Shown in pieces: positions 1,828 to 14,935 of a stretch of DNA of 14,935 nucleotides. A model generated the notes under the pieces. It made no database searches. It saw only the letters and a list, made by a program, of their open reading frames with translations, and was not told the origin of the DNA. Positions within the stretch are counted from its first letter, which is position 1, and every line of letters starts with the position of its first letter. Origin of the DNA: Actinomycetes bacterium (GTDB lineage: Bacteria > Actinomycetota > Acidimicrobiia > Acidimicrobiales > Palsa-688); contig JAKBBA010000081.1 of assembly GCA_021808665.1 (NCBI GenBank), positions 1-14,935 of the forward strand, read 5' to 3'. The translations under genes were made by a program, and so were the position numbers.

Positions 1828-2539
1828 CCGCCGCTCGTCGCACCGCTCGAGAACCGCTATGGCGTCGGCGATCCGGGCGTTCCGTTTCGGTTACCCGGCC
1901 CTGTTCCCGACGCGACGCTTGACGGGTCCGGCGGAAGATCTCGAGCTCGCCCCGGTCGAGGACTGGCAGTTCGAGATAGCCAGGGCCGAGACAGCAGCGT
2001 TCCGTAACGCCGAAACCCACCTGGATCTGCGGGCGCTGCTCGTGCTGGGCCGCGGGGCGGGCCTCGGCGGCCTCGAGCTGCGCTACACGACAGGCTCCCA
2101 CATCGGACACGTTCCCGCAGCGGGCACCTGGGTGGAAGTGACCGCGCCCGACGAGCAGCGCCGGGTGCCGATCCTCGCCCGGCTCGCCGACCTAGCCGAA
2201 GATCTCGCCGTCGTCAGATCCGAGCGGTGCATGATCGCAAACGGCCCCGCGCCGTGCGACCCGAGCCAGGCGGGGCATCTCGCCGGGGTGCTGTCGCGCA
2301 GCCTGCGCCGCCACGGTCACGGTTTCCGGATAAACACCGAAGGGCTGCGCAAGGCGTGGCTGGTCGAGCAGGTCGCGTCGAACACCCCGATCCCCACCTT
2401 TCAGGCGGCGGACGGGCTCAAATCGCTGCGCAGCCTGGAACGGCTGGTCCCTTACGCCCCCCGCCCGCCGGCATCGCCGGTACATCTCGCCTACGAGCTC
2501 GGCGGTATCGAGGCTCACGAGGACAGCCGCCGCAGTTGA
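1736..2539 (+). pseudogene. 5'-truncated integrase-like ORF
   Basis: The frame opens after an in-frame TAG at 1733-1735 and ends with TGA 2537-2539. There is no ATG, GTG or ribosome-binding site near the front; TTG at 1781 is the first possible start. Coding character is good: DEETIQYFIANEG, an Arg-rich helix, FGYPALFPTRRL, then RALLVLGRGAGLGGLELRYT and a C-terminal segment GLRKAWLVEQVASNTPIPTF. This order (core-binding-like helix, L-x-L-G-x-G-A-G-L strand-helix, then an Arg-rich helix before a short tail) resembles degenerate tyrosine-recombinase-like proteins of actinobacteria that carry an additional N-terminal 100 residues or so, missing here. I infer loss of the 5' part at the same breakpoint (about 1735-1760) that removed the front of the opposed recombinase. 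The 3' end overlaps the transposase start (TTGA), so translation of the two may be coupled. Family placement is tentative. Confidence 0.5.
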
Positions 2540-4044
2540 ACCGTCGGATCCTGCCGGTCGTCGAGAGATATCTCGCGTCGCTAGACCAGGTCTTCGCCGA
2601 CCTGGACGTGGCGACCCGCGGCCGACGTGGCCCCAAAGGCGCCCCGCTCAAAGCCTGCATTGGGGCTGTCATCTACAACCTGCTTGCCCACAAGCCGCCT
2701 ACGGTCCTTGGAGCCGCCCGCACCCTGCGCGACGAGACGTCACCGGCAGAGCTTGCCGTGTTCGGGCTGTCCGCACCTCCGTCGTGCTACAGCGTTTACC
2801 GGACGTTCGGCCGTCTCAACAGGGTATTGGCCAGCCGGAACTTCAGCGTCGACCCCGAAAACCCGCCGGCGAGCCTCGACGCTCTCCTCGCGGCTAACGA
2901 CGACCCGGCCCTCAGGGCGGTGCTCCACGAGATGCTCCGATCGGCCAGCACCCCCACCTCCGGCGAGGCGCAAGACGGCCTGTGGAGCCTCGACACCACC
3001 TACCTCGACTCGAACTGTCGGCCGATCAGCCACGAAGCCTACGACGCCGGGGACCGCGCCTCGGATCCCGACGCATCCGGCCGGATCATCGCCCGACCCG
3101 GCGTCGACCCGAAGAAGTACTTCGGTTACCGCCTGACCAGCGCATCTCGCTCACAAGGTGAACACGAGTACATCGACGCCTTCCGCATCGGCACCGCCTC
3201 GTCGCATGACCGCCCCGCCGCCCTAGAGATCGCCGCCGATCTCGTTGCTCGCGGCGAGCCCATCCGCTACCTGGCCATCGACCGGGGGTTCAACTCGGCC
3301 GCCGTGTTCGCCGACCTGCGGGCGCTTGGGGTGGAACCCGTCTTCGATTTCAACAAGGGTACAGACCGCCTCGAGGGCGTCTTTCGGGGCCTGCTGATCG
3401 TCGGCGGATGGCTGCACTCGCCGGCGCTACCTGAACGGCTTCGGTCCCTGCCGCCCAAGCCGGTCGGCCCTCCCGCGGCGGAGGTCGACGAGTGGTGCCG
3501 GTTGCACGACGAACGCCAACGCTACGCCTGGCGGATCCGCTGCGTTCGGGGGCCTGGCGATGTCCAGCTGATGCCGCCCGTAGGTGTGGGCTGCAAACAT
3601 GTGAGTATGCGACCGTCGATGCGCGACCGCGACCTGGCGTTGAAGACCTGCCCCGGCGAGCACGGGCCCGACGAGGGCTGCTGCTTGAACACGGTGCTGT
3701 GGAAGGCCGAGAACGCCCCGATGACCTGGCAGGCGTATCCGTGGGGGTCCAAGAAGTGGCGGCGCCTGTACAAGCTGCGCTCTTCGGTGGAACGTAACTA
3801 CTCCCTGCTGAAGAACTCTGACATTGTCGACGTGTCTCACGCCCGTATCCGGCTGCGCACGATCGGGAAGGTCTCGTTGATGTTGGCGATGGCAGTGGCC
3901 GCCACTAATCTGCATCTGGCCAACTGCGAGATCTTCAGCGACCGGAGAGTCACGCCACTCGCCCGACTGAATTCGACGCTCCCCCACCACAACGACTGGC
4001 CGCCTGAGTCTTTCGGGAGCCGGCACAACACAGGTAGGAGATGA
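2536..4044 (+). CDS. DDE-type transposase (about 502 aa)
   Basis: I place the start at TTG 2536, whose TTGA overlaps the preceding stop; the frame is open upstream to 2227, but that part lacks protein-like content. The N-terminal 110 residues (RRILPVVERYLASLDQVFAD, then CIGAVIYNLLAHKPPTVLGA) are a helical DNA-binding region. The catalytic triad is visible: Asp153 in SLDTTYLDSN, Asp249 in LAIDRGFNSA and Glu419 in RSSVERNYSLLKN, the last in the YREK-like context of IS4-type transposases. Segments PKKYFGYRLTSAS and FDFNKG fit the RNase-H-like fold. The insert between Asp249 and Glu419 is long (170 residues) and holds several Cys and His residues (CKH, CPGEH, CC) that might bind zinc. The ORF appears full length. 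I found no matching terminal inverted repeats near 1740-2530 or 4045-4110, so the limits of the insertion sequence are unknown and IS family assignment is left open. Confidence 0.85.
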   Translation: MNRRILPVVERYLASLDQVFADLDVATRGRRGPKGAPLKACIGAVIYNLLAHKPPTVLGAARTLRDETSPAELAVFGLSAPPSCYSVYRTFGRLNRVLASRNFSVDPENPPASLDALLAANDDPALRAVLHEMLRSASTPTSGEAQDGLWSLDTTYLDSNCRPISHEAYDAGDRASDPDASGRIIARPGVDPKKYFGYRLTSASRSQGEHEYIDAFRIGTASSHDRPAALEIAADLVARGEPIRYLAIDRGFNSAAVFADLRALGVEPVFDFNKGTDRLEGVFRGLLIVGGWLHSPALPERLRSLPPKPVGPPAAEVDEWCRLHDERQRYAWRIRCVRGPGDVQLMPPVGVGCKHVSMRPSMRDRDLALKTCPGEHGPDEGCCLNTVLWKAENAPMTWQAYPWGSKKWRRLYKLRSSVERNYSLLKNSDIVDVSHARIRLRTIGKVSLMLAMAVAATNLHLANCEIFSDRRVTPLARLNSTLPHHNDWPPESFGSRHNTGRR

Positions 4045-4143: not shown

Positions 4144-4238
4144 GGTCAGTTCTGCGGTATCCGCTTCAGCTATCTATCCACTTGCCGTGGAAACTCGCCA
4201 TGCGGAACCGCGAAACACGCAACTGCCTCTTTTTATGA

Positions 4239-4247
4239 GGACCTGAC
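4239..4247. other. Candidate left attachment core (GGACCTGAC)
   Basis: The 9-mer GGACCTGAC occurs here and in the same orientation at 14787-14795, 42 nt from the nrdJ stop. Between the two copies lie the recombination operon, the methyltransferase/nuclease pair and most of the AGGGG(G)AC motifs. That is what duplicated att cores around a tyrosine-recombinase element would look like. A shared 9-mer between two 200-nt regions has roughly a one in seven chance of arising randomly, so this alone is weak. Confidence 0.25.
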
Positions 4248-4253
4248 CAGAAC

Positions 4254-4362
4254 GGGGGTTTCCCCCTGAGTTATCAGTCCCCCTCTTGATGGCCAGACTC
4301 CCCCTACGTGTTCTCGTCCCCCCTTGCCAGTCTGGTCGCTCCGGACCCGGCATGTGTCCCCC
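4254..4362 (-). repeat. Cluster of spaced AGGGGG(A/G) motifs
   Basis: On the plus strand C5 or C6 runs start at 4262, 4279, 4300, 4318 and 4358, nearly all preceded by (A/G/C)(G/C)T and followed by T. On the minus strand they read AGGGGGACA, AGGGGGGACG, AGGGGGAGT, AGGGGGACTG and AGGGGGAAAC. Spacings are 17, 21, 18 and 40 nt. A 7-bp inverted repeat CCAGACT (4293-4299) and AGTCTGG (4329-4335) encloses two of them. The first run also forms a GGGGG-TTT-CCCCC hairpin (4254-4266). No gene is readable here. An array of protein-binding sites such as recombinase arm sites is one explanation; simple C-rich composition is another. Confidence 0.4.
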
Positions 4363-4537
4363 TGCGGAGATGCGGGAAAGGCGGAGGAACGCTCTGGGTC
4401 ACAGCGATGACACCCGGTGGCGGATTAGAAGCCTGTCAGGATGGCCGAACGGACGCACATCCCCAGCCCCTCACAGCCCCCTTGAGGCTGAGGCCAGAGA
4501 ATGGATTGCCGAAGGGTGGTACTCAGTCAGCCTTGGG
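4363..4537. other. Non-coding trailer behind the DUF262-HNH gene
   Basis: No gene is supported; the plus-strand frame running into 4798 is antisense to the nuclease gene. A small hairpin CAGCC (4474-4478)/GGCTG (4486-4490), extendable by CCT/AGG across a bulge, lies about 50 nt behind the nuclease stop. It could be a weak terminator but has no T-run. A further C5 run starts at 4477. Confidence 0.4.
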
Positions 4538-5653
4538 CTACAGACGCCCCGAGCGGTTGTCTCGGATGCAAAGCATCTGACAGTTCTGAGGGATCGTCTT
4601 TCCTCCCTCTGTCCACGGAAGAATGTGGTCGCCGTCCATCTCGCTGTACTCGAAATGTTCACCGCACTGAGGGCAGATACCATTCTGCCGCTCATACGCC
4701 TCGCGCTTCGTGTTGTCGTCGAAAGTACGGATCCCGAGTTGACGCTCATCCCGAGTGAGGACGTACTCATAAATGCCGGACTTCTTCGTGACCTCTGAGT
4801 CCTCCATGAGCGCCTTCACCTCAGCCTCAAGAGCACTAGCGTCGAGTGTTTGTTCCTTGAACTTCTCGTAGAGCACGTTCCACGGGACGGACCGCATCGG
4901 CGCCCGAACGTTCGGGAAGGTCACCTTGGCCCAGTCCACGACACTCTTGAAGTACAGCCAGAGGGCGGTGGCGTTGGGATCCAGCCGATGCTCGTTCATG
5001 TAGGCCTTGATGGTGTCGTCGCCCTTGCCAGCAATCCAGCTGATTGCCTTCTCCAACAGTGCCTGACGGTCGACCTCACCCGAGCTTACGTACTCCCGCG
5101 ACAGCAGGTGGGCTGCTTGGTTCTCACGAGAAAAGTAGCGTTTGGCGTCTGTCAACCAAGGCCCCGAGTAAACAGCGTTGCGCAGCTCCTGCTTCTTTAG
5201 CGTCTCGCCAGCGATGTTGATGATTTCGAACCACCGCAGCTTCTCGTCTTCCGTACCTGTGCAGTGATAGATCATCAACTCGTCCTCGAGAATCTTGTCC
5301 TGCTCAGCCGTCGACAAGTTGTCGAAGTTCTTGGGATAGCCGCCAATCTCAACGGAGAACTCGCCCTCAACGAACTCGCAGATCGACATGGTGCGCTGCT
5401 GTCCGTCAAGAAGCTCGTATGAAGTCTCACCATCCTCGTCCGTCTGAACCGACCAGTACATGATGTTGAGGGGGAAGCCGTCAAGGATGGTCCGGATCAC
5501 GGCACGCCGCTGGGGCAGATCGTAGATGAACTCACGTTGAAATTTCGGGCGAATATCCAAGAGTCCGCCATAGCCTGTGACGCCGTCGTAACCCAAGTTC
5601 TCGTACTCGTTAACCAGATCACGAACGGGGACCGCGTGGAGGGCGATGTTCAC
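4538..5653 (-). CDS. DUF262-HNH nuclease (371 aa), putative restriction/defence effector
   Basis: The N-terminal half is a DUF262 (GmrS/ParB-like) domain: FQREFIYDLPQRR with Gln39-Arg40, the signature LLDGQQRTMSI (81-91) and INIAGETLKKQELRNAVYSG (145-164). Members bind or hydrolyse nucleotides, and the DGQQR loop is the hallmark. The C-terminal 50 residues are an HNH endonuclease module with a zinc pair Cys327/Cys330 (CPQC), the catalytic segment DGDHILPW (Asp342-His343), then NCQMLC and Asn366. The domain combination is like GmrSD-type modification-dependent restriction proteins, with a small HNH in place of DUF1524. The chosen GTG start (5653) shares GTGA with the methyltransferase stop (TGA 5650-5652), so expression is translationally coupled, and no separate ribosome-binding site is visible. 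The protein stops five residues after the HNH core, so the end is short but the motif is complete. Substrate (unmodified, methylated or hypermodified DNA) cannot be read from the sequence. Confidence 0.85.
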   Translation of the reverse strand: MNIALHAVPVRDLVNEYENLGYDGVTGYGGLLDIRPKFQREFIYDLPQRRAVIRTILDGFPLNIMYWSVQTDEDGETSYELLDGQQRTMSICEFVEGEFSVEIGGYPKNFDNLSTAEQDKILEDELMIYHCTGTEDEKLRWFEIINIAGETLKKQELRNAVYSGPWLTDAKRYFSRENQAAHLLSREYVSSGEVDRQALLEKAISWIAGKGDDTIKAYMNEHRLDPNATALWLYFKSVVDWAKVTFPNVRAPMRSVPWNVLYEKFKEQTLDASALEAEVKALMEDSEVTKKSGIYEYVLTRDERQLGIRTFDDNTKREAYERQNGICPQCGEHFEYSEMDGDHILPWTEGGKTIPQNCQMLCIRDNRSGRL

Positions 5654-6877
5654 GACGCAGGTCCGATCCGCCGTACCAACACGCGCACGTACGTCTGTAC
5701 GAAATACTCCCCATCGACCATGTAGTAGGTCTTCCCCGTGCGTGCGTGTGGGACTTTGATTGCCGGGACGTCGTTCAGCTTCGTGACCGTTGACTTAATG
5801 CCACTGGGACTCACTTGGGTCTGAGGCCCGTACGTCTTGGTCGCGCCTCCGTACCATGTTTTCGCCGCTCCGACGATCTCGAACTGCTCAGGGTTGAACT
5901 TGTCCAGGAAGGTGATCGGCACCCCCATGACTCCCTCCCAGTCCTCTGGGATGTCGACAGTTCTGGACACCTCGATGGCATCGAAATTGTCGTAGTGGGG
6001 GTACTTCTCAGGGCTGTACCTCTCTACTAGGACCATGCGGTCGTGACGCTTGGCGTGGTCGAGGTTGGTGAACCAGCACACTCCGCCCATCCGCCGCCAC
6101 TTCTGTCCGTGGGGGTCCTGCCGGTAGTCCGTGTCCTTAGGGGTGTAGTGATCTGGAACCCGGAACCAGAAGTGCCCAGAGTTGACCCCAAGCCAGAATT
6201 TTCCGCCTTGAACGTACGGGAACAGGTCAGCGTAGAGCGCCTGGTTCAGATGACCGATTACGAGGAACGACTTGTCACGTTCGAGCAGCGTCGTCAGATA
6301 TTTCGACCATCAGGCTGAAGGGCGGATTCGTCACAACGATGTCCGCTTCCTCGAGCGACGACATGCACTCGTCGGATCGGAAGTCGCCATCGCCCTCTAG
6401 TGGGGTCAAAACGTTGGCGTCGTGCTTCAATAGGTATTCGACGTCCGCGAGCCCGATGGAGCCATCCTCATTGGTGTCAGGGATGTCCGTGATTTCGATC
6501 TTGTACGGTCGGCGCTCGTCTGCCTCTTCTTCGCTGAGGCCCTTCAAGTCCGAGAAGAGGAGTTGCTGACCTGCGACAGGGGACCCTGAGTAGCAAGAGG
6601 CTATGAGCTTCTTGATCTTAAGCCGGCGGAAGTTGATGACGAAGTATGTAAAGAAGGCGGACTCGTAGGGGTCGTCACAGTTACACAGCACCACCTTGTT
6701 CCTGAAGTGCTTCCTGAAGTGCTTCAGCTCGTTCTCAATGTCGGCCAGCTGAGTGTAGAACTCGTCCTGCTTGTTGGCCTTAGCGGCGGTCAGCCACGAG
6801 TTGGTTCTCGCTGTCACCTGTCCCGGGCCGAGTCCGTTCGTGTCGCTGTCCGCTGCGTCCAACACCGACCTCACCAT
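5650..6877 (-). pseudogene. EcoRI-type adenine-N6 DNA methyltransferase, interrupted by a +1 frameshift
   Basis: Two minus-strand frames (6877-6275 and one ending at 5650) together give a colinear protein of about 408 aa of the EcoRI methylase family. ATG 6877 has AAAGGA about 10 nt upstream. Visible landmarks are KANKQDEFYTQLADIE (34-49), the NCDDP segment (66-70), LEGDGDFRSDE resembling the SAM-binding FxGxG motif (160-170) and the catalytic VTNPPFSL (182-189). The frame breaks right after Val190-Glu191, where the minus strand reads GTCGAAATATCTGACG; dropping one A of the AAA (6301-6303) restores YLTTLLERDKSFLVIG. The new frame then continues without a stop through FWLGVNSGHFWF and MGGVCWFTNLDHAKRH to TGA 5650-5652. 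Untreated, the product would be a 200-aa fragment lacking the C-terminal half. The cause may be a real mutation, phase variation or a sequencing error. It is coupled to the DUF262-HNH gene, which it would be expected to protect or complement. Base composition looks less GC-rich than in the recombination operon. Confidence 0.85.
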
Positions 6878-6915
6878 ACTGATGGTCCTTTGGCGTGATG
6901 GTCGGTGCCAGGCAT

Positions 6916-6940
6916 CTGTGACAACACAGCTCCCATAATA
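6916..6940 (-). promoter_or_regulatory. Possible promoter and operator of the methyltransferase-nuclease pair
   Basis: Upstream of the methyltransferase start the minus strand has a -10-like TATTAT (6935-6940). A 5-bp inverted repeat, CTGTG (6916-6920) and CACAG (6925-6929), would fall over the predicted start of transcription. No good -35 hexamer is seen at 16-18 nt. The repeat may be an operator, but no controller gene is present nearby. Confidence 0.3.
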
Positions 6941-7047
6941 GTTACATCCGTGTCATCTCACGTACCCCTGAGGGGCCTCCCCTGCGCTAGCTCCCGCCAT
7001 CGCCAAGCTCACTCCTCCACCGCCCTGAGTGCAGCGTAGAACTCCCT

Positions 7048-7065
7048 CCGCACAGCACTGTGCGG
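7048..7065. repeat. 18-bp palindrome CCGCACAG-CA-CTGTGCGG
   Basis: The 8-bp arms are perfect with a 2-nt centre. The tight centre is unlike a terminator loop and suits a dimeric DNA-binding protein. Its CACAG/CTGTG half-sites also occur, in the opposite order, in the inverted repeat at 6916-6929 near the methyltransferase promoter. No dedicated regulator gene is seen between the two operons. Confidence 0.45.
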
Positions 7066-7066
7066 T

Positions 7067-7095
7067 CTGTCACTCATCGTCGCTAACGCTATGAT
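7067..7095 (+). promoter_or_regulatory. Rightward promoter-like sequence with no gene in front
   Basis: CTGTCA (7067-7072), 17 nt, then TATGAT (7090-7095) on the plus strand. The -10 is good and the -35 moderate. Nothing codes rightward from here, so a transcript would be non-coding and would run antisense to the 3' end of the DUF3987 gene unless stopped by the hairpin at 7181-7197. Confidence 0.25.
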
Positions 7096-7180
7096 AATTG
7101 CTCGAACAGCGAGTGTTGCGGTGCGGGTAGCCGGCCACATCCTCTAGCGACCGTCGTTACCTGTAGAGGTCGAAGAACGC

Positions 7181-7197
7181 CAGGTGCACGCCACCTG
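7181..7197 (-). terminator. Hairpin just after the recombination operon
   Basis: CAGGTG (7181-7186) and CACCTG (7192-7197) form a 6-bp stem with a 5-nt loop, 14 nt beyond the DUF3987 stop. Reading leftward there is no pure T-run (GCGTTCTTCG follows). Placement supports a transcription end for the five-gene operon; strength looks moderate. Confidence 0.35.
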
Positions 7198-7210
7198 TTG
7201 ACCTATTGGG

Positions 7211-8647
7211 CTACCAAATGGTCGACGGGCTGTCGCTTTCTGATCCCCCGCTGTAGCTGATCACCGTCGCCGGTCTTCCCCCGTTGGGATTCTGGACGGC
7301 TCGCCGGGCTATGACGCCGTCCCGGCTGAGCCTCTCTAGCATCCGACTCCGCTTCTGGGCCGACATGTGCTTGGAGAACATCTCGTCGATGTCCGTGAGT
7401 GTGAGGTCGGCGAAGTCGATCTCACGCCACATCTGAAGTAATTGATCGGCGTGCTGGTTGCCGGTCATCCCGGCGAAGAAAGCGGTGGCTGACCGGTGGC
7501 AGTAAGCCCACGCTGCCCGGGCTGCGGCGATGTGGTCGACGCCGATGACCGCCATGCCCTCGATCGCTGCGTACACGACGGCAAGCTTGTAGATCTGGGC
7601 GGCCCAGCGAGCGGACTGTTTGCCTATGGCACCATCGAGCCGGTGGTCCGTCATGGCTGCATGGGTCTCGCCGAACAACTCCGTCGCAGCGGGACTGAGG
7701 TCCACCGGGCCGTGGATCTGGGACTTCGCGCGCTCAAGGTTCGCCAGGATCACAGCACGCGCTTCGGCTGCCCCTCGAATCTGGTGGGGTGCGGGCGGAC
7801 GTACGACAACGGCTGTCTTCTTGATCAGCACGTAGAGCCAGCGATTCGAGAATCCATTGTCGATGAGTCGCTTGTCAAGCCGTTGGAGCAGCTCGTCCGG
7901 GGTGACATGACCGATGATCGACACATGAGGCCGGGTGCAGCGCATGGACTCTTTCTTGGTGGTCGTCTCCAGTACCCCGGAGTCCCAGGCCTTCGTGATC
8001 ATCTTCTCGACCGACTCTTGGGTGAGCATCTTGTTGAACAGAGCGCCGAGTTCTTCCTCGACGTAGAGGACTCGCTTGTCCTCGGACCCCGGGATGGCCA
8101 GCACCCGGCCCCCCTTGGGGGATTGCGAATAGACCGGATCGGTGATCTTCGACAGGAGACCTTCGCCGGACCCGACGGCGGTGATGAGGCGATCGACCCG
8201 GTAGCTCTCGTCGATGCCGGCGAGCAACCAGTCAACGAATGCGAAAGAGGACCCCTTGCCAGAGGCCGTGTTGCCGACCACGGCAAGGAACAGGTTGGCG
8301 CGTCGTTGGTTGGCGCCGTCCTCAACGAACGGGTCATAGCCGATATAGTTACCGAGCGCGACCAGTGCCTGCATGTGGAAGGCGACCGGGTCCCATGGCA
8401 CGAAGGGGGCGATCGCCCGCGTCAGCCCGCCGAGTGGCCCGACGAACATCGCCGGCTGCGGCGGGCCGGGAGCCCCAACGGCGTCCGGGAACACGTCGGA
8501 CCAGCCGGCGTCGTCCGGAATGGGCCGGTCGTAGCGGACGCCGAGCACGTCCGCTATCGCGGGCTGTGCTGCTCGTGGCGAAGCCGGGGAGTCTTCTCGT
8601 CGCTGAGAGTTCGAGCGTTCCTCGACAAGTCGCAGTAGCTCAGGCAT
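7211..8647 (-). CDS. DUF3987 P-loop ATPase/helicase-like protein (478 aa)
   Basis: The protein belongs to the DUF3987 group found on plasmids, phages and integrative elements, where members act like helicase or primase-helicase ATPases. Seen in order: a variable N-terminal 60 residues; Walker A VVGNTASGKGSS (123-134, Lys131); a Walker-B-like strand RVLYVEEELGALF (192-204) with three Glu; HVSIIGHVTPDEL (241-253); and NGFSNRW (264-270), whose Arg269 may be an arginine finger. A C-terminal winged-helix-like segment is at about 415-455 (LTDIDEMFSKHMSAQKRSR, then LSRDGVIARR). No primase active site is visible, so the N-terminus is not a standard prim-pol. ATG 8647 overlaps the upstream stop by 8 nt (ATGCCTGA), making it the last gene of the recombinase operon. 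Context suggests a role in replication or processing of the excised element; this is inference. Confidence 0.85.
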   Translation of the reverse strand: MPELLRLVEERSNSQRREDSPASPRAAQPAIADVLGVRYDRPIPDDAGWSDVFPDAVGAPGPPQPAMFVGPLGGLTRAIAPFVPWDPVAFHMQALVALGNYIGYDPFVEDGANQRRANLFLAVVGNTASGKGSSFAFVDWLLAGIDESYRVDRLITAVGSGEGLLSKITDPVYSQSPKGGRVLAIPGSEDKRVLYVEEELGALFNKMLTQESVEKMITKAWDSGVLETTTKKESMRCTRPHVSIIGHVTPDELLQRLDKRLIDNGFSNRWLYVLIKKTAVVVRPPAPHQIRGAAEARAVILANLERAKSQIHGPVDLSPAATELFGETHAAMTDHRLDGAIGKQSARWAAQIYKLAVVYAAIEGMAVIGVDHIAAARAAWAYCHRSATAFFAGMTGNQHADQLLQMWREIDFADLTLTDIDEMFSKHMSAQKRSRMLERLSRDGVIARRAVQNPNGGRPATVISYSGGSESDSPSTIW

Positions 8648-9167
8648 CGTCGAGCCCCGGTTCCTCGGTCATTGTCGGAAGTGAACGCAGCGGGCGCACT
8701 TTGTCGGCCCTCTCCTTGAGGTTGGCGTCGTAGTCGGCCTTCAGCCGCCAGTGGAGTTCCGCTGCGTACGATGCGAACTGCTTGAGCACTTGCTCCGCCT
8801 CCTCCCGACGTCGGCGCTCACGGTCGATGGTGCGGTGCGCCTCCTGGAGCTGTTTCGCCATCTCGGTCACCGACGGCCCGGCCTTGACGCTTTCGAGCTG
8901 GGTACGGACGAAATGCGGCATCAAGCGCGTGACCTGATCGAGCAGCTCGGCGTGGTCGCGGTAGGTCGCCGACCGGGCTGCAGGGGCGATAGACGTGACC
9001 GACTTCTTTGTGAGCGGGCGATCGGCGGCGGCCAGCACGGCGGCGGCGACGACAAGTCGCAGGGCCACCGGGACACCTTCGGCACCGAGGAGGTCGCCGC
9101 TGAAGGATTCGCCGTCGGCCATACGGGTAGCCGCTCGCATAAGAGCTACGACACCCTCGTCGTTCAT
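8640..9167 (-). CDS. Small HTH/coiled-coil protein (175 aa), TnpC-like accessory factor
   Basis: A helical N-domain contains a helix-turn-helix-like segment at about 50-82: RPLTKKSVTSIAPAARSATY followed by RDHAELLDQV, recalling the 'T-x-x-x-V/I-A-x-x-A-x-x-S-x-x-T-x-Y-R-H' pattern of TetR-type and TnpC-type proteins. A long charged coiled coil follows at about 99-145 (EMAKQLQEAHRTIDRERRRR then EEAEQVLKQF). In Tn554-like and related elements a small protein with HTH plus coiled coil follows the recombinase genes and affects frequency and orientation of transposition. Position here, right behind the third recombinase, matches. The ATG at 9167 overlaps the stop before it as ATGA, with GAGGGG upstream. 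The N-terminal 45 residues are Ala/Val-rich but not a membrane segment. The assignment rests on size, order and motif shape rather than a direct match. Confidence 0.6.
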   Translation of the reverse strand: MNDEGVVALMRAATRMADGESFSGDLLGAEGVPVALRLVVAAAVLAAADRPLTKKSVTSIAPAARSATYRDHAELLDQVTRLMPHFVRTQLESVKAGPSVTEMAKQLQEAHRTIDRERRRREEAEQVLKQFASYAAELHWRLKADYDANLKERADKVRPLRSLPTMTEEPGLDDA

Positions 9168-11389
9168 GGCCGCCCCTCAAGCGCAGCCCGGACGTAGTCG
9201 TCGACGTGGTCGGCGATGATCCGCTGCAGATCTTGGTCGCTGTGGCTCTCGAACTCCTTCCGGATCTCCGGGTTGGCCTCGTCCATCTTGGCGGCGGCGC
9301 GGCGGAGTACCGGGGCATCGAGGACGAGGTGCTGGCGCCGCATCAGTTCGTAGCGGGCACGGTCGGCAGGCGACATGACGGAGTTCCCGCACTGGCCGGG
9401 CAGGCACAGCCGAAAGTCAGCCTTGCCTTTGCCCCCGCAACGGGCGCCCTCTTGCTGGTAGATGCAGAGCGTGAGAGGTCCCTGCTCAAGGTTGGGATTT
9501 GCTTTGCCCAAGGTGGCGAGCCGGGCCAGCGTGAGCGGCGCCGGGTTGCTCAGCCGGTCGGCGTGAGCTTCGATCGTCTCCTCAAGCCTGGCAAGGCCCC
9601 TGCCAGTCAGGTTCTCTCGCTCCCGCGCCGCCCGCACCAACCGCCGCCCCCTGTCCTGGCGCGCGATATCGAGCGCGTCCTCCGGCTCGAGCGGCGTGAT
9701 CAGCTTGTAGACATCGCCGACGTAACCGGTGGCAACCGCCGCTGTGTCCCACTGCCCGAAGGCTGCGGCGAGGGCCTGGCCGTGCTCGCGCACCGCGTAC
9801 GCCTGTGCACAGGTGATCCGGACCTGGCGCATGTTAAGCTCCGCGTCGGCGAGATCACGCCCGATCACACCCCGCTCGTAAAGCTCGGCCGCTCCGCCGC
9901 GCATCACGCTGACGAAGCTGAGGTCGAGGTAAAGCTCGTCGCGATTGCCATCGCGTGGCAGCTTTCCAAGTGGAGTGGCGATGCGCTGATCGAACAGCAG
10001 CGGCAGGCCGGTCTGGGAATGACGCGCCGTTTCGTACCCGAGGGCGCGCTGCAACCGCTGAAGAACGGCGATGACCTGCTCAACGCGTGCGTTCACCGTC
10101 ACGGTAGTGGGGACCGGGGCGTGCCGGTTCTTCGTCTTGAAGGCCTTCAGGGTGCGCTGCTCGTAGCTCGTGCCGTCCGAGAGCGTTCGGACCTCGACGA
10201 CAAGCGGGTCGAGCGGCAGCATGGCGAGCTGGCTATCGCGCAGCATCACGGTGGCGGCCAGGTAGTACATAGCCGCATACACGAGCCTGCGCTGCCACAG
10301 ATCCAGTTCCAGGTTCGTGGGCATCAACCCACGCGTCCACGGGAGGGCTGGGCCGTTCCGGGCGGGAAGCACGGTGATCGGCACAGGGCATGGGCTGTAG
10401 TCCTCGGAAAGGGTCACGCTGTCACCGAGCTGCGACATGACCCACCGGCCTGCCAGGTACGCCTCGTCGGAGTCGTATGCGCCCAGGAGCCGACCGAGCA
10501 CCCCGTGGGCAAGAGTGAGGCCCCCGTTGAGGTTGCGGGAACCCGGGAGGCGTCCTCCTGACTTGTGAGCGAGCTCACCGGCGAGGTCCAGCATCGCCTC
10601 GCGCAGTTCCTCCCGCGATAGGGGAGCCTCGTCTGCGCAGTTCGCCGCCCACCACTCGACGTGCTCCACGATGTCCTCGGCGATGTTGTCGAAGATCCAG
10701 GCGGCGTAGCCGAGCATGTGTCCGACGCTCTCATGGGGGCGGACAGAGTTCAGACGTAGCCGGTGTCCGAAGACGCTGTTCAGCTCCTTACCGTCGAACG
10801 GTGCGCCTTCGCCGAGCAATCCGGTCCGGCTTGTAATGATCGTGCACTGCCAAAGGGCGACGAGTTGCTGTGCTCGGCCCCGCCCGGTCGCGGCAGAGAG
10901 CACAGCACCTTCCCGTTTGTCGCTCACATCGACAGGCTGCACGAGGAGAACGCTTAGGCGCTGCCACTCGTCGCTGTCGAAGCGGACGATTCCGTTCCTG
11001 TCAACAATCCCGAGAGCGTGGGAGAGCATCTTCAGGTTTCCTTGTGCCGTGACGGGAGCGACCGGCTCTTGAATCTCGGGCCAGTTCTCTGCCATCGGGT
11101 TGCCGGCGGCCCTGATCTTCGCCAGTGACGGGTTGAGCTGGATGAGGGCGAGCTCTTTGGCAGCACCCTGCCAGCGCGGAGCGAACCTCTGGAAGTCGAG
11201 CCGGGTGGCGGTACCTGCCTTGTCACGCCAGCTCGGATGTCCCGCCAGATCCCAGCAATCGAGCCCGAACGTGACGTCCCTCGACAGGTGTTCCCCGCCG
11301 GGGATGAGGTCTGCTATCCGCTCTGTCGGCAAGAACATCGGTCCAACAGCCGGCGAAGTGGGACTGCGAAGCGGGATCGGGTCAGCCAT
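9164..11389 (-). CDS. Large divergent tyrosine recombinase (741 aa) with C-terminal Cys cluster
   Basis: This is the third recombinase-like gene of the operon. About 350 N-terminal residues are unlike standard phage integrases. The catalytic core begins near 365: YYLAATVMLRDSQLAMLPLD supplies the first Arg (Arg384), FKTKNRHAPVP a Lys (418 or 420), and MRQVRITCAQA the second Arg (Arg524), with Arg in place of the usual His. GQWDTAAVATGYVGD has Gln546 instead of His and the likely nucleophile Tyr556. The tail has four Cys, 642, 651, 662 and 667 (LCIYQQEGARC and LCLPGQCGNS), followed by a helical region, suggesting zinc binding. Such Cys tails occur in TnpA/TnpB-like recombinases of transposons. 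ATG 11389 has GGAG 7 nt upstream and overlaps the preceding stop by 8 nt (ATGGCTGA). With two catalytic substitutions it may work only together with the other recombinases. Confidence 0.75.
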   Translation of the reverse strand: MADPIPLRSPTSPAVGPMFLPTERIADLIPGGEHLSRDVTFGLDCWDLAGHPSWRDKAGTATRLDFQRFAPRWQGAAKELALIQLNPSLAKIRAAGNPMAENWPEIQEPVAPVTAQGNLKMLSHALGIVDRNGIVRFDSDEWQRLSVLLVQPVDVSDKREGAVLSAATGRGRAQQLVALWQCTIITSRTGLLGEGAPFDGKELNSVFGHRLRLNSVRPHESVGHMLGYAAWIFDNIAEDIVEHVEWWAANCADEAPLSREELREAMLDLAGELAHKSGGRLPGSRNLNGGLTLAHGVLGRLLGAYDSDEAYLAGRWVMSQLGDSVTLSEDYSPCPVPITVLPARNGPALPWTRGLMPTNLELDLWQRRLVYAAMYYLAATVMLRDSQLAMLPLDPLVVEVRTLSDGTSYEQRTLKAFKTKNRHAPVPTTVTVNARVEQVIAVLQRLQRALGYETARHSQTGLPLLFDQRIATPLGKLPRDGNRDELYLDLSFVSVMRGGAAELYERGVIGRDLADAELNMRQVRITCAQAYAVREHGQALAAAFGQWDTAAVATGYVGDVYKLITPLEPEDALDIARQDRGRRLVRAARERENLTGRGLARLEETIEAHADRLSNPAPLTLARLATLGKANPNLEQGPLTLCIYQQEGARCGGKGKADFRLCLPGQCGNSVMSPADRARYELMRRQHLVLDAPVLRRAAAKMDEANPEIRKEFESHSDQDLQRIIADHVDDYVRAALEGRP

Positions 11390-13238
11390 GTCGCATCTCC
11401 ATGTACATGCCGGTCACGGTGAGGATGTGAGGACGCAAGTTGGTGTTACGGCGCACGTTCTCGACGACCAGGCGAGGGAATTGGTTCAGGCACTCCCGGG
11501 CGTAGAAGCGGAGAGGAGCCGCCTGTCCCTGCTCCCACTCGGTCGGGTCGTTGCGTTCGATGATGTTGCCGAGCTCCACGGCGGCGAGTAACCCCGGAAC
11601 GTGATCGACCGTCCGGTAGCCGTTCGGGCAGGTGAAACAGGCGACGATTCCCAGCGAGCAGCGTCGGTCTGGCTGGTCGGGGTCACTGCCGCCGGAGGTG
11701 CACAGGCCGACCTCGACGTCCATCACCTCGGCCGGGTCGATGGCCGCGAGCTCGCCAGCGAGTCCGTCAGTGGCGTCGGCAACCACCTGGAACTTGGCGA
11801 CGGCGTCGTCATGGAAGGAATCCTGGGCGGCGACGGCATGCTTGTTGAACACGTGGTCAGGCAGGACGTGGGCGGTGTAGTGGACCTTTGTCCGCTCTGA
11901 GTGGCCGTGGACGTCTGCGTGGATACCCTCGTTCAAGGCTCGGGCCAACGCCACAAGCCTGAGAGCTGACATCCGCAGCGGCACTTCGGACCGTTCCCCC
12001 GCCGAGGAGTCCCAGTCTGCGTCGAACTCCCGGTTAGAACGCCAGGCCGAGATCATGCGTTGCGAGTCGAGGACCCGCGCATCGCTCGGATCCGCTGTGT
12101 GCTCGACGTAGAGACGGCTGACAATGACTGACGGAGTGCCGTTCGGGTCGACGAGGTGCCCCCGGTGGAAGCGGGAGAAGCGCGTCAGACCGCACAGGCC
12201 CTCCACGATCCCGCCGGCCGAGTACAGCGGCGAGCGCCGCGTGACGCGCGTGTCCTGGGTCTTGTTGCGTGCTTTTACGTTGTGCTCGAGAGCCTCGTCG
12301 GACCCGAGGAACACGAGGCTGTCAGCGGACTTCTCAAGCAGCACCGAGAGGTTGTAGCCACTGTTGTCGCCCAGGCAGTGCAGGATGGCCGCAGCGGTCA
12401 GCGTCACATTGTCGGGGTATAGCGCGATCCCGATCTGCTGCAGACGTGCGCCGGTCGCCAGGGGTCCCCGTGCGAACCTCCGGTAGCCGAACATCGCCGG
12501 GTGGGTGAGGGCCCAGGCCATCTGCTGGTCATAAGTAGCGCCGAACAGGGGCTGGGGTGCGTTGGGCTCGCAGTAGCTCGGGTGGCTGGTACGTGCCCAC
12601 GAGATCAGTTGCTCGGCCGGGATTCTCAGCCAGTCGCGGCCATCGACGTCATGGCCGAGCCGCTGCAGCAGCTCGCGCTGTGCCTCATACCGTTTGCGGT
12701 AGACGGCTCGGGCTGCCTTCTCTATGGCGGCCGAGACAGGCTCGTCGTAGCGGAACGGACTTGACTCATCCACAGCGAAGCGGGTGTTCTTGAGTGCGGC
12801 CGCCAGAGCCGTCCCATTCGGGTGGTTGTCCCTGATGACACGTGCCAGTAGCCAGCAGGCGGACCGTCGCATGTTCGACGTCAGCGGTTGATAGAGAGCC
12901 CGCAGCGATCCGACATCTAACCGCTCGTCCGCGAAGGTATCGAAACCATGATTCTCCAGCTCCCTCAGGATGACCTTGCAGTAAGACAAGGCGTTGCGAA
13001 CGGTTTGCGACGACTCCCAACCCGATGCCGCGTCGCCGTTGTTCCCGACCTTGATCGAGTCCGCCATCGCCTGGAGCAGCTGGCGCGCCACCGTCGTCGG
13101 TTCCACAGAGAGGCGGGCCACTGCGGGCTGGAAGGCGCCTGTGTGCCGGTAGGTGATCGTCAGTTCGTCGAAGTCGACCGCGACTATCTCCTGGATCTCG
13201 TAGGTTCCGGATCGGCGACCGCGACGGGGGTGCGCCAT
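11382..13238 (-). CDS. Divergent tyrosine-recombinase-like protein (618 aa), catalytic residues partly lost
   Basis: Second gene of the operon. The N-terminal half (about 60-180) is a helical core-binding-like domain (TVRNALSYCKVILRELENHG, then SNMRRSACWLLARVI). In the catalytic half, AAILHCLGDNSGYNLSVLLE aligns with the strand-helix that normally carries the first Arg, but here it reads GYN. MSALRLVALARAL matches HxxR with Ser424 instead of His and Arg427 kept. VHGHSERTKVHYTAHVL keeps His446 and a Tyr at 454, eight residues apart. A Cys cluster follows: 513, 527, 534 and 537 (LCTSGG, then RRCSLGIVACFTC), probably a zinc site. ATG 13238 overlaps the first recombinase's stop by one base (TGATG), with GGGGAG upstream. 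The missing Arg and His suggest a structural or regulatory partner in a recombinase complex; alternatively it uses unrecognised residues. The recombinase-fold assignment is by pattern and gene context. Confidence 0.65.
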   Translation of the reverse strand: MAHPRRGRRSGTYEIQEIVAVDFDELTITYRHTGAFQPAVARLSVEPTTVARQLLQAMADSIKVGNNGDAASGWESSQTVRNALSYCKVILRELENHGFDTFADERLDVGSLRALYQPLTSNMRRSACWLLARVIRDNHPNGTALAAALKNTRFAVDESSPFRYDEPVSAAIEKAARAVYRKRYEAQRELLQRLGHDVDGRDWLRIPAEQLISWARTSHPSYCEPNAPQPLFGATYDQQMAWALTHPAMFGYRRFARGPLATGARLQQIGIALYPDNVTLTAAAILHCLGDNSGYNLSVLLEKSADSLVFLGSDEALEHNVKARNKTQDTRVTRRSPLYSAGGIVEGLCGLTRFSRFHRGHLVDPNGTPSVIVSRLYVEHTADPSDARVLDSQRMISAWRSNREFDADWDSSAGERSEVPLRMSALRLVALARALNEGIHADVHGHSERTKVHYTAHVLPDHVFNKHAVAAQDSFHDDAVAKFQVVADATDGLAGELAAIDPAEVMDVEVGLCTSGGSDPDQPDRRCSLGIVACFTCPNGYRTVDHVPGLLAAVELGNIIERNDPTEWEQGQAAPLRFYARECLNQFPRLVVENVRRNTNLRPHILTVTGMYMEMRHG

Positions 13239-14620
13239 CAGAACTCCCCGAGGAACTGCTCGACCGGGATGTGTAGAAAGCGGTGTGCTGCCAGGATATA
13301 GAGGCGGGTCGAGGATTCGCTCGCGTGGCCGAGGGAGAACTTCACGAGCTCAACGGCCGCCGCGACGTGGTCCACCTGCCAGTCCTCACGCCGGCTCTCC
13401 GGCAACGAGTTGGCGATGACGTTGCGATAGATGGCCACGGTGAGGTGGACGGCGTATGTGTGGCGGAGGTCGTGGAGTCGGACACCGTCGGGGAAGTCGG
13501 CGTTCAGGTGGGCGCGAACGAAGCTGCTTGCGTCGGCCACTGTGTGCTGCAAGCTGCTGTAGGCGAGCGGGGCGCCCGTGTGCTCGTTGAGGAACACGAT
13601 CGGGCTGGAAGCGTCCGCTTCAACGAGTCGCCGGCGGAAAGTCTCGTCGCATTGCGTCCAGCGCTGACTCATCACCCGCTCTGACGACCCGGGGTCCCGG
13701 TAGCGGACCGTCACCGAATTCGCCTCGATGATCTCGAGCGGAGACGGAGGACGGTACGCCGTCCTCCGCACCAGCTCGGCACGGGCGCCGTCGACGTAGT
13801 TCCAGACGGCCGCGAGGTGATGGGAGAAGACCATGGTGTCGCCGCCGGCGTCTCCCTTGGTGATGTGGTCCGCCACGCGCATTGTGGTGAATGGCAGGGA
13901 GCAGGGCCGTGGCAGCTCGTAGACGGTCGTATTGGCGAGGTTGTTACGGCGCAGCCCGGAGGCGAGACCGAGGGAGATGAGCGCGTAGTCCCGGTCGGCA
14001 CCGAGGTACGCCTTCTGGTGGCCCTTGAGATCGACCCGCAGGGCTCCCATCAGCAGGAGGTGCGCGAACTCCGGGGTGAGCGGCGTGCCCGCCGACCCAG
14101 TGCTGCGCCGGCGTGGCGCATAAGAGGCGATCGTCGTCCCGCTCCACCCTCCCGGATGGGAGAACGTCACGATCTGGAATGGTGGGATGTGCTGGTAGTT
14201 GCGCTGGAGGTACTCGTAGAAGCGCTTGATGGAAGACGAGCTGTGGCGCCAACCGTCAGAGGTCAGAACGGCCTCCTCAGTTCCGTACTGGCGGAGACGG
14301 TAGTAGGCAGCGAAGTCATCTTCGGTGGCGACCAGAACTGGGTCACGGCTGTCCTCGTAGGGAGCAAGGTTGCGCTGGTTGACCAGGAAACCAACCCAGC
14401 CGGCAAGGTCTGACGCGATCCGGGTCGCAGTTGCCAGGTCCGGCCGTGCGGCACAGTAGTGCCGGAGGAAGTTACTGGTCAGGCCGTGGATTCGACCATC
14501 GACGGTGATGAACGGTCCTGGGGAGTCCTCTAGTGACGGCCGAGTCAGTGGCGGCTGGCCGATAACCGACGCGATGGCGTCGTCCTCGTAGTCAACTGGC
14601 TTCCACACCCGAACCTGCAC
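13238..14620 (-). CDS. Tyrosine recombinase/integrase with complete active site (460 aa)
   Basis: First gene of the five-gene operon and the one nearest the presumed element end. The N-terminal part (about 45-160) is a SAM-like core-binding domain (LTSNFLRHYCAARPDLATAT, then SSSIKRFYEYLQRNYQHIPP). Catalytic residues are all visible: Arg224 in LASGLRRNNLAN, a candidate Lys in DHITKGD, His383 and Arg386 in LHDLRHTYAVHL, His432 in SLGHASES and Tyr441 in STRLYILAAH, with the standard nine-residue His-Tyr spacing. Function expected: breakage and rejoining of DNA through a 3'-phosphotyrosine link. Start GTG 14620 is chosen because GGAGGT (14626-14631) sits 5 nt upstream. It is probably the catalytic leader of the trio, with the two larger downstream proteins as partners. 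No excisionase is evident unless the 175-aa protein plays that part. Confidence 0.9.
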   Translation of the reverse strand: MQVRVWKPVDYEDDAIASVIGQPPLTRPSLEDSPGPFITVDGRIHGLTSNFLRHYCAARPDLATATRIASDLAGWVGFLVNQRNLAPYEDSRDPVLVATEDDFAAYYRLRQYGTEEAVLTSDGWRHSSSSIKRFYEYLQRNYQHIPPFQIVTFSHPGGWSGTTIASYAPRRRSTGSAGTPLTPEFAHLLLMGALRVDLKGHQKAYLGADRDYALISLGLASGLRRNNLANTTVYELPRPCSLPFTTMRVADHITKGDAGGDTMVFSHHLAAVWNYVDGARAELVRRTAYRPPSPLEIIEANSVTVRYRDPGSSERVMSQRWTQCDETFRRRLVEADASSPIVFLNEHTGAPLAYSSLQHTVADASSFVRAHLNADFPDGVRLHDLRHTYAVHLTVAIYRNVIANSLPESRREDWQVDHVAAAVELVKFSLGHASESSTRLYILAAHRFLHIPVEQFLGEF

Positions 14621-14692
14621 GCCCTACCTCCGTGATGTCCGCCTCGCGCGACTGGCACGAACAAGTGTACGTAGGGTGTGTGACAGTCTCGT
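14621..14692 (-). promoter_or_regulatory. Leader of the recombinase operon: ribosome-binding site and weak promoter
   Basis: Upstream of GTG 14620 the minus strand has GGAGGT at 14626-14631, a strong ribosome-binding site. Further up a TACACT -10-like hexamer lies at 14664-14669, with no convincing -35 (ACGAGA at 17 nt). The TGACAGTC arm of the large inverted repeat (14681-14688) overlaps the expected promoter, so protein binding there could control the operon. Confidence 0.4.
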
Positions 14693-14800
14693 CCCGGTCA
14701 GGTCACCGGCGAGTTGGAGGTCCCCTCCTCCGGGTTACGTTCGACCGGAGGAGGGGACACTTAGATGACGGTCAGATCCGTTGTCCGGACCTGACTGTCA
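14681..14800. repeat. Nested inverted repeats between integrase operon and nrdJ
   Basis: Several pairs are nested round one centre near 14740. TGACAGTC (14681-14688) pairs with GACTGTCA (14793-14800), GTCAGGTC (14697-14704) with GACCTGAC (14788-14795), and the 14-bp hairpin 14720-14758 sits inside. A local pair GACGGTCAG (14767-14775)/CTGACTGTC (14791-14799) matches 8 of 9, and CCGGT (14694-14698)/ACCGG (14705-14709) is also present. Such symmetric layering next to an integrase gene suits a recombination site or element end, with GGACCTGAC (14787-14795) as the candidate right attachment core. Function is inferred from placement. Confidence 0.45.
14720..14758. terminator. Perfect 14-bp inverted repeat with 11-nt loop
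   Basis: GTCCCCTCCTCCGG (14720-14733) and CCGGAGGAGGGGAC (14745-14758) match perfectly around an 11-nt loop. Coming from nrdJ on the minus strand this would be a stable terminator shielding the integrase operon, though no T-run follows on either side. The arms contain the same GGGGAC word as the motifs at 4254-4362, so a recombinase-binding role is an alternative. Confidence 0.6.
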
Positions 14801-14836
14801 GAGGCCACGAAGGGGACATCCCGAGCATGGTCGGAC

Positions 14837-14935
14837 TTATGAGCAGCCGCTGGTACTCCCACAAGACGGGCAGGCATGGCAACTCCCGGCGCGCTGCATC
14901 TGCACCCCGCAGTCGAAGCAGTACGGGGCATCGGA
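14837..14935 (-). CDS. nrdJ: 3' end of class II (B12-dependent) ribonucleotide reductase (5' part outside window)
   Basis: The last 32 codons read SDAPYCFDCGVQMQRAGSCH followed by ACPSCGSTSGCS and TAA (14837-14839). This cysteine-rich end, with two CxxC pairs and a closing G-S-T-S-G-C-S, is the typical tail of adenosylcobalamin-dependent ribonucleotide reductases of actinobacteria; these C-terminal cysteines are thought to shuttle reducing power to the active site during conversion of ribonucleotides to deoxyribonucleotides. Only the tail is present, so intactness upstream is not known. No standard terminator follows within 40 nt of the stop; the next strong hairpin is at 14720-14758. The gene marks the chromosomal side of the presumed insertion. 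Confidence 0.8.
   Translation of the reverse strand, partial: SDAPYCFDCGVQMQRAGSCHACPSCGSTSGCS

What the first reader, a model, noticed from the sequence alone, without database searches (positions are those of the whole stretch)
7211..14620. Five-gene overlapping operon: three tyrosine-recombinase-like proteins, a TnpC-like protein and a DUF3987 ATPase
Every junction overlaps (TGATG, ATGGCTGA, ATGA, ATGCCTGA), so the five products are likely made in fixed proportion as one machine. One recombinase has the complete R-K-H-R-H-Y set; the two larger ones have substitutions at key positions plus C-terminal Cys clusters. Recombinase trios and Tn554-type tnpA-tnpB-tnpC sets are known, but a translationally coupled DUF3987 P-loop ATPase as the last member is not part of those standard descriptions as I know them. 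It suggests an element that couples site-specific recombination to replication or unwinding of its DNA.
Basis: partly seen in the sequence, partly recalled or inferred. Interest (0 to 1): 0.75.

Follow-up and report, generated by a model that had tools for sequence, protein, structure and literature searches.

The report
Mobile island parked at nrdJ's end
The five genes belong to a 10.6-kb mobile DNA element sitting at the end of a DNA-building-block enzyme gene (nrdJ) in what is probably an actinobacterium; four of them look like its recombination machine, of a type known from other bacteria, while the ATPase gene is an optional passenger missing from most relatives.

Summary
The five overlapping ORFs are real. 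They lie in a complete-looking integrative element (about 4,239-14,836), inserted at the last two codons (Ser-stop, TCATAA) of nrdJ, with end motifs and TCATAA on both sides. Ten relatives have equivalent ends; empty sites in sister genomes back three of them (best L001; also L003, L007), none the window itself. The core is four genes (460, 618, 741, 175 aa), found in 11 of 11 bounded elements; overlaps were the same in the five loci measured. DUF3987 is in 2 of 11; elsewhere other cargo takes its place, and in the second DUF3987 element the gene lies 89 nt downstream of C. A five-part machine is therefore not supported: DUF3987, a split EcoRI-type methylase and a restriction enzyme are cargo. 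The 618- and 741-aa proteins do model as tyrosine recombinases. Order, sizes, profile matches (some weak) and ends resemble SE/GInt four-gene elements (intA-tfp-intB-srap; ginABCD), which the papers I read describe outside Actinobacteria. In 3 of 11 elements the two end hexamers differ, yet each is a Ser codon plus stop, hinting at an SE-like footprint of an earlier host's nrdJ. Circle formation and DUF3987's role are untested.

The parts
14837..14935 (-). 3' end of nrdJ (class II ribonucleotide reductase), ...CPSCGSTSGCS-stop; the insertion target
   Evidence: translation; an ORF with the same CGSTSGCS-stop end lies upstream in 10 of the 11 loci (L008 has none on its contig). The names nrdJ, and NrdR for the ORF before it, are recalled from general knowledge of these sequences
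14837..14842 (-). attL hexamer TCATAA (last two codons of nrdJ, Ser-stop)
   Evidence: position set by comparison with ten other elements
14811..14836 (-). left-end motif GTCCGACCATGCTCGGGATGTCCCCT
   Evidence: matrix built from six other elements scores 22.1 here; only an inner site at 14752-14777 scores higher (25.4), the next site 11.5
13238..14620 (-). Y1, 460-aa tyrosine recombinase with full catalytic set (IntA/GinA position)
11382..13238 (-). Y2, 618-aa tyrosine-recombinase-fold protein lacking the first catalytic Arg, with C-terminal Cys cluster (Tfp position)
9164..11389 (-). Y3, 741-aa large tyrosine recombinase with C-terminal Cys cluster (IntB position)
8640..9167 (-). C, 175-aa small protein (Srap/GinD/TnpC position)
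7211..8647 (-). D, DUF3987 P-loop protein: cargo
6275..6877 (-). cargo: N-terminal piece of a split EcoRI-type adenine methylase (profile 2-153)
   Evidence: the two pieces are in different frames
5650..6090 (-). cargo: C-terminal piece of the same methylase (profile 226-344)
4538..5653 (-). cargo: GmrSD_N + HNH restriction endonuclease (PADLOC REase_II 1.5e-128)
4239..4270 (-). right-end motif GGGGGAAACCCCC...TGGTCAGGTCC
   Evidence: matrix built without the window scores 24.6 here, next best 14.4, over both strands of the whole window; exact 11-mer TGGTCAGGTCC shared with the L001 right end, which an empty site anchors
4233..4238 (-). attR hexamer TCATAA, direct repeat of attL

Best explanation
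A 10.6-kb SE/GInt-type integrative element, probably in an actinobacterium, integrated at the Ser-stop codons of nrdJ without altering the protein. Y1 (full catalytic set) and Y3 (large recombinase with Cys-rich tail) most likely do the strand cleavages; Y2, without the first catalytic Arg, acts as a DNA-binding or structural recombinase-fold partner; C is the accessory factor that stimulates or orients the reaction. Together they pair the two end motifs, cut around a 6-bp spacer and join the ends into a circle that re-inserts at another nrdJ. DUF3987 and the restriction-modification genes between C and the right end are cargo. Shown: gene set, end motifs, target, empty sites for some relatives, differing cargo. 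Inferred: role of each protein, circle, 6-bp spacer, copy-out style, and the host phylum of the window.
Confidence: 0.85

Rival explanations
1. DUF3987 is a stable optional component of one sub-lineage: a helicase-like ATPase that replicates or unwinds the excised or copied-out DNA, co-inherited with the core and lost or replaced in other branches.
For: Overlaps C in the window and is the next gene after C in both elements that have it. For four DUF3987-bearing sets (window, L001 and two metagenome contigs whose core and DUF3987 proteins have the same listed contig lengths 15469 and 15254) DUF3987 identity roughly follows core identity: 77.4/65.4/65.8/69.4/68.5/83.0% against Y2 69.6/60.0/60.0/61.3/63.3/79.1%. 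Phages and viral contigs encode distant DUF3987 relatives.
Against: Absent from 9 of 11 bounded elements, including L002, which falls inside the window+L001 group of the core tree (support 0.82). No overlap in L001. Linkage on the two contigs is inferred from equal lengths only. In a 396-genome actinobacterial sample 12 genomes have DUF3987 relatives at E 1e-20 or better, while only one, G001, has the core in what appears to be the same sample.
Confidence: 0.12
2. A five-part recombination-replication machine.
For: Overlap of all five genes in the window.
Against: Nine of 11 bounded elements lack DUF3987.
Confidence: 0.02
3. An ordinary Tn554-type tnpA-tnpB-tnpC transposon or a RIT trio with unrelated neighbours.
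For: Two recombinases with catalytic residues plus a small last protein resemble Tn554 as described in PMC10214605 (passages and Background).
Against: Tn554 lacks a Tfp counterpart, here Y2 is present in 11 of 11; RIT recombinases are 315-410 aa, all with catalytic Tyr, with no fourth protein listed. No Tn554 or RIT sequence was compared here.
Confidence: 0.05

Closest known systems
SE (strand-biased circularizing integrative elements, SE-6945 / SE-6283; PMC10214605, PMC9345347)
   Same: Four genes in the order ordinary recombinase, recombinase-fold protein without full catalytic set, large recombinase, small accessory (SE-6945 on pSEA1: 408, 581, 720, 135 aa); inverted end motifs; a 6-bp unit at the junction; one target; similar size (7.2 and 13.8 kb; here 7.3-12.7 kb); no conjugation gene recognised in the window element.
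   Different: Actinobacterial relatives instead of Gammaproteobacteria; target nrdJ; protein similarity mostly at weak profile level; Y2 keeps Arg-II, His and Tyr; strand bias and lack of empty site untested.
GInt (ginABCD genomic islands; PMC5385486)
   Same: Three recombinases plus small fourth protein, cargo beginning at the stop of gene 4, one recombinase lacking the first Arg, restriction-modification cargo, insertion at gene 3' ends; two near-identical GInts reported at the end of ribonucleoside-diphosphate reductase alpha genes in P. aeruginosa.
   Different: In GInts the Arg-lacking protein is the third (GinC), here the second; flanking repeats 10-17 nt there, 6-7 bp here; reported phyla do not include Actinobacteria; named GInt proteins were not available for comparison.
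Tn554 tnpA-tnpB-tnpC
   Same: Two catalytic recombinases plus small TnpC, 6-bp footprint (as described).
   Different: No Tfp-like gene in Tn554; sequences not compared here.

Membership tests
SE | Four-gene order intA-tfp-intB-srap with matching sizes | tested here: met
   best profile match at the same position in 4 of 4 rows, weak for three of them
SE | Direct sequence homology of all four proteins to SE proteins | tested here: inconclusive
   Y1-IntA 89.8%, others 6-19%; stronger for Y1 and Y3 through L125
SE | Second protein with recombinase fold but no RHRY set | tested here: inconclusive
SE | Imperfect inverted repeats at the two ends (relatives) | tested here: met
   left-right similarity reached by at most 2 of 1000 random positions in 6 of 11 elements and by 9-30 of 1000 in 4
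SE | Imperfect inverted repeats at the two ends (the window itself) | tested here: inconclusive
   72 of 1000 random positions score as well; both ends match the matrices of other elements
SE | 6-bp footprint next to the right end differing from the host | tested here: inconclusive
   hexamers differ in 3 of 11 elements (L001, L007, L009), equal in 8 including the window; host-versus-foreign direction clear only for L001
SE | Strand-biased circle, no empty site after recombination | not testable with these tools
   needs PCR on live cells
GInt | ginABCD-like four-gene operon at one end, cargo starting at the stop of gene 4 | tested here: met
   window: next ORF overlaps gene 4 by 8 nt; L001 and L002: next ORF 89 and 219 nt on; core at the nrdJ end in 11 of 11
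GInt | GinC (third) is the recombinase lacking the first Arg | tested here: not met
   here it is the second protein, N296; the third keeps R384
GInt | 10-17 nt imperfect direct repeats | tested here: inconclusive
   6-bp exact repeat TCATAA (7 with the preceding C) in the window; 6 bp or less elsewhere as read
GInt | Homology to named GinA-D proteins | not tested
   no named GInt sequence was reached; a Paraburkholderia four-gene set (L117) matched Y1 5% and Y3 13-20% at the same position, Y2 and C under 0.5%
RIT trio | Three 315-410 aa recombinases all with catalytic Tyr, no fourth protein | tested here: not met
   460/618/741 aa plus conserved 175-aa protein
Five-part machine with DUF3987 | DUF3987 conserved with the core | tested here: not met
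   2 of 11

The most novel reading that the evidence does not exclude
The element moves by the SE-style non-reciprocal route, so the hexamer at its right end is a record of the last two codons of the previous host's nrdJ (L001 carries TCG-TGA beside a host AGC-TGA), and in one sub-lineage the co-inherited DUF3987 ATPase has become a helper that unwinds or replicates the copied-out strand.
Probability: 0.12. Interest if true: 0.68.

Novelty: new variant of a known kind. Interest (0 to 1): 0.45.

Why it matters
It extends the SE/GInt type of four-gene element (in GInts all four genes are reported essential) to Actinobacteria, with a defined target (the nrdJ terminal codons), mapped ends and some empty sites, so excision and the 6-bp footprint can be tested in ordinary soil strains. 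The Ser-stop hexamer may be a readable tag of the previous host. It also shows that a gene overlapping an operon perfectly need not belong to its machine.

Tried and rejected
Five-part machine: rejected. The 618-aa protein was not found in viral contigs, plasmids or phages. Direct search for a long repeat of the nrdJ end inside the element failed; the right end was found through empty sites and inverted motifs. The 75% repeat 4747-4770 / 14817-14840 lies in the restriction-enzyme ORF and was dropped as chance. Right ends were not found for L008 (no nrdJ on its contig), L010 and L011 (only a C-terminal piece of Y2 before the contig ends, no Y1), nor in L121-L123 (remnants); these six are not among the 11 bounded elements. 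Sequence search of solved structures: nothing for Y1, only matches at E 0.9-1.5 for DUF3987. Unrelated chains stand among the Foldseek rows of Y2 and, in larger number, of Y3, and type IB topoisomerases, which share the fold, among the VIA rows. Paper searches: no listing shown joined nrdJ, DUF3987 or Actinobacteria with such elements; only open-licence papers are held, only top rows are shown, and (10 of 547 listed) was filled by taxon words, so absence from print is not shown.
Full report
What is in the window. The five minus-strand ORFs are as described, with junction offsets -1, -8, -4 and -8 nt. Downstream of DUF3987 lie an EcoRI-type methylase in two pieces in different frames and a GmrSD_N+HNH restriction enzyme. 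The host is not known; the named relatives are actinobacterial.

Relatives. A search with the 618-aa protein lists 91 proteins, itself included. A scan of species genomes gave 11 loci. Ten hold the four genes Y1-Y2-Y3-C in the same order; L011 holds only a C-terminal piece of Y2. BLAST finds DUF3987 in one of these ten, L001. An nrdJ end lies upstream in 10 of 11. The family is rare: 1 of 396 genomes in a phylum-wide sample, the centre genome itself; 9 of 354 in the family of G412, of which 5 strong, 1 degraded and 3 weak; 1 strong and 13 weak of 394 in the family of G413.

Ends. nrdJ of L001 was compared with 15 other Geodermatophilus genomes, of which 14 gave loci. L001 sequence beyond its element reappears immediately after nrdJ in two (L016, L026) and 34-107 bp after it in two more (L024, L027); the other ten show no such match. 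So L001 holds an insertion of about 12.7 kb starting at the nrdJ stop. Twelve of the 14 ends were printed; 11 of these read AGCTGA. The left end reads (T)CACCATC..GTGTCCCC, the right end the inverse, GGGGGGACACCCC...ATGGTCAGGTCC. That pattern gave right ends in L002-L006 and the window, a related form in L007 and L009, and in two further elements, L119 and L120. For L003 and L007 sister Actinoplanes genomes also show the flank close after nrdJ. A matrix from six other elements picks window 4,239-4,270 as the best site on either strand (24.6, next 14.4), followed by TCATAA, the hexamer that ends nrdJ. Left and right ends tend to change together between subtypes (TGTCCCC, TATCCCC and TGTCTCC forms), but the window's right end reads TTTCCCC. 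Within single elements the repeat is not always significant: 72 of 1000 random positions do as well in the window, 9-30 in four elements, 0-2 in six.

Core versus cargo. Among 11 elements with both ends (window, L001-L007, L009, L119, L120) profile searches in all six frames find Y1, Y2, Y3 and C in 11 of 11 and DUF3987 in 2 of 11. Besides the window, Y2/Y3 is -8 and Y3/C is -4 in five of five loci measured (L001, L002, L003, L006, L009), while DUF3987 starts 89 nt after C in L001. Ten cargo ORFs of seven elements were scanned: one Abi_C protein (L001), methyltransferases (L002, L003), an SDR dehydrogenase (L003), a sigma factor (L005) and a P-type ATPase (L009) were found; one (L007) had only a sub-threshold hit and three had none. 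DUF3987 is thus read as cargo. One result leans the other way: in four DUF3987-bearing sets, two of them linked only by equal contig lengths, DUF3987 identity roughly follows core identity, so DUF3987 may have travelled with a sub-lineage for long.

Closest systems. GInts (PMC5385486; outline and parts 1-3 of 6 read) have an essential ginABCD operon, cargo starting at the ginD stop, and targets at gene ends including a ribonucleotide reductase gene. SEs (PMC10214605; passages, Background part 1 and section 6 read; PMC9345347, passages) have intA-tfp-intB-srap, inverted repeats and a 6-bp footprint. SE-6945 was fetched from pSEA1, nine further plasmid loci and one Paraburkholderia set by similarity to its IntB or Tfp. 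The 'SE' profiles pool SE-6945 with eight of those nine loci (L110 left out), several only 23-28% identical, whose class (SE or GInt) I did not establish. Against them each window family scores best at its own position (89.8, 6.2, 11.8, 19.3%; off-position at most 1.4%). Against the Paraburkholderia set only Y1 and Y3 point to their position. A four-gene set in genome G816 (L125) bridges the two: 99, 96, 98 and 0.95% to Y1, Y2, Y3, C and 98, 18, 99, 95% to IntA, Tfp, IntB, Srap; the Tfp value is nearly tied with its third protein (16%). I therefore place the element in the SE/GInt superfamily as a separate actinobacterial lineage, nearer SE in gene order.

Footprint. Left and right hexamers are equal in 8 of 11 elements and differ in L001 (AGCTGA/TCGTGA), L007 (AGCTAA/AGCTAG) and L009 (AGCTAA/AGCTGA). 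Every one is a Ser codon plus stop. For L001 the left hexamer is the genus norm and the right one foreign, as the SE model predicts; for L007 neither is the genus norm (27 of 29 congeners AGCTGA), so it does not help; for L009 the genus norm is unknown. This is suggestive only.

Change on checking. Confidence in the best explanation was lowered from 0.88 to 0.85 for that reason.

Noticed in passing
window 14752-14777 (-): A second left-end-like motif 59 bp inside the left end, scoring higher (25.4) than the boundary copy (22.1); possibly an arm-type site or remnant of another end.
   Followed up: partly
window 5650-6877 (-): EcoRI-type methylase split into two ORFs in different frames beside an intact-looking restriction enzyme ORF, a combination that should endanger the host if both states were real; could be a sequence error.
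   Followed up: partly
window 760-1827 (-) and 2227-4044 (+): Outside the element: a Xer-like recombinase (Phage_integrase 3.4e-30) and a DDE transposase (DDE_Tnp_1 9.1e-08).
   Followed up: no
L121, L122, L123: Left ends after nrdJ without a full core: no core gene found in L121 and L122, pieces of Y3 and C in L123: likely decaying copies.
   Followed up: partly
L004, L006, L009: Core genes broken in single elements: Y3 in two frames (L004), Y2 in two ORFs (L006), an in-frame stop in Y3 (L009).
   Followed up: no
L125 9182-14940 (-): A distant four-gene set (508, 604, 676, 134 aa) in another actinobacterial genome; 13 of 394 genomes in that family sample have weak Y3 matches, most on the Cys-rich tail, hinting at more such families.
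   Followed up: partly
Viral contigs L030-L075: 46 viral contigs encode relatives of the window's DUF3987 protein at 21-35% identity.
   Followed up: no
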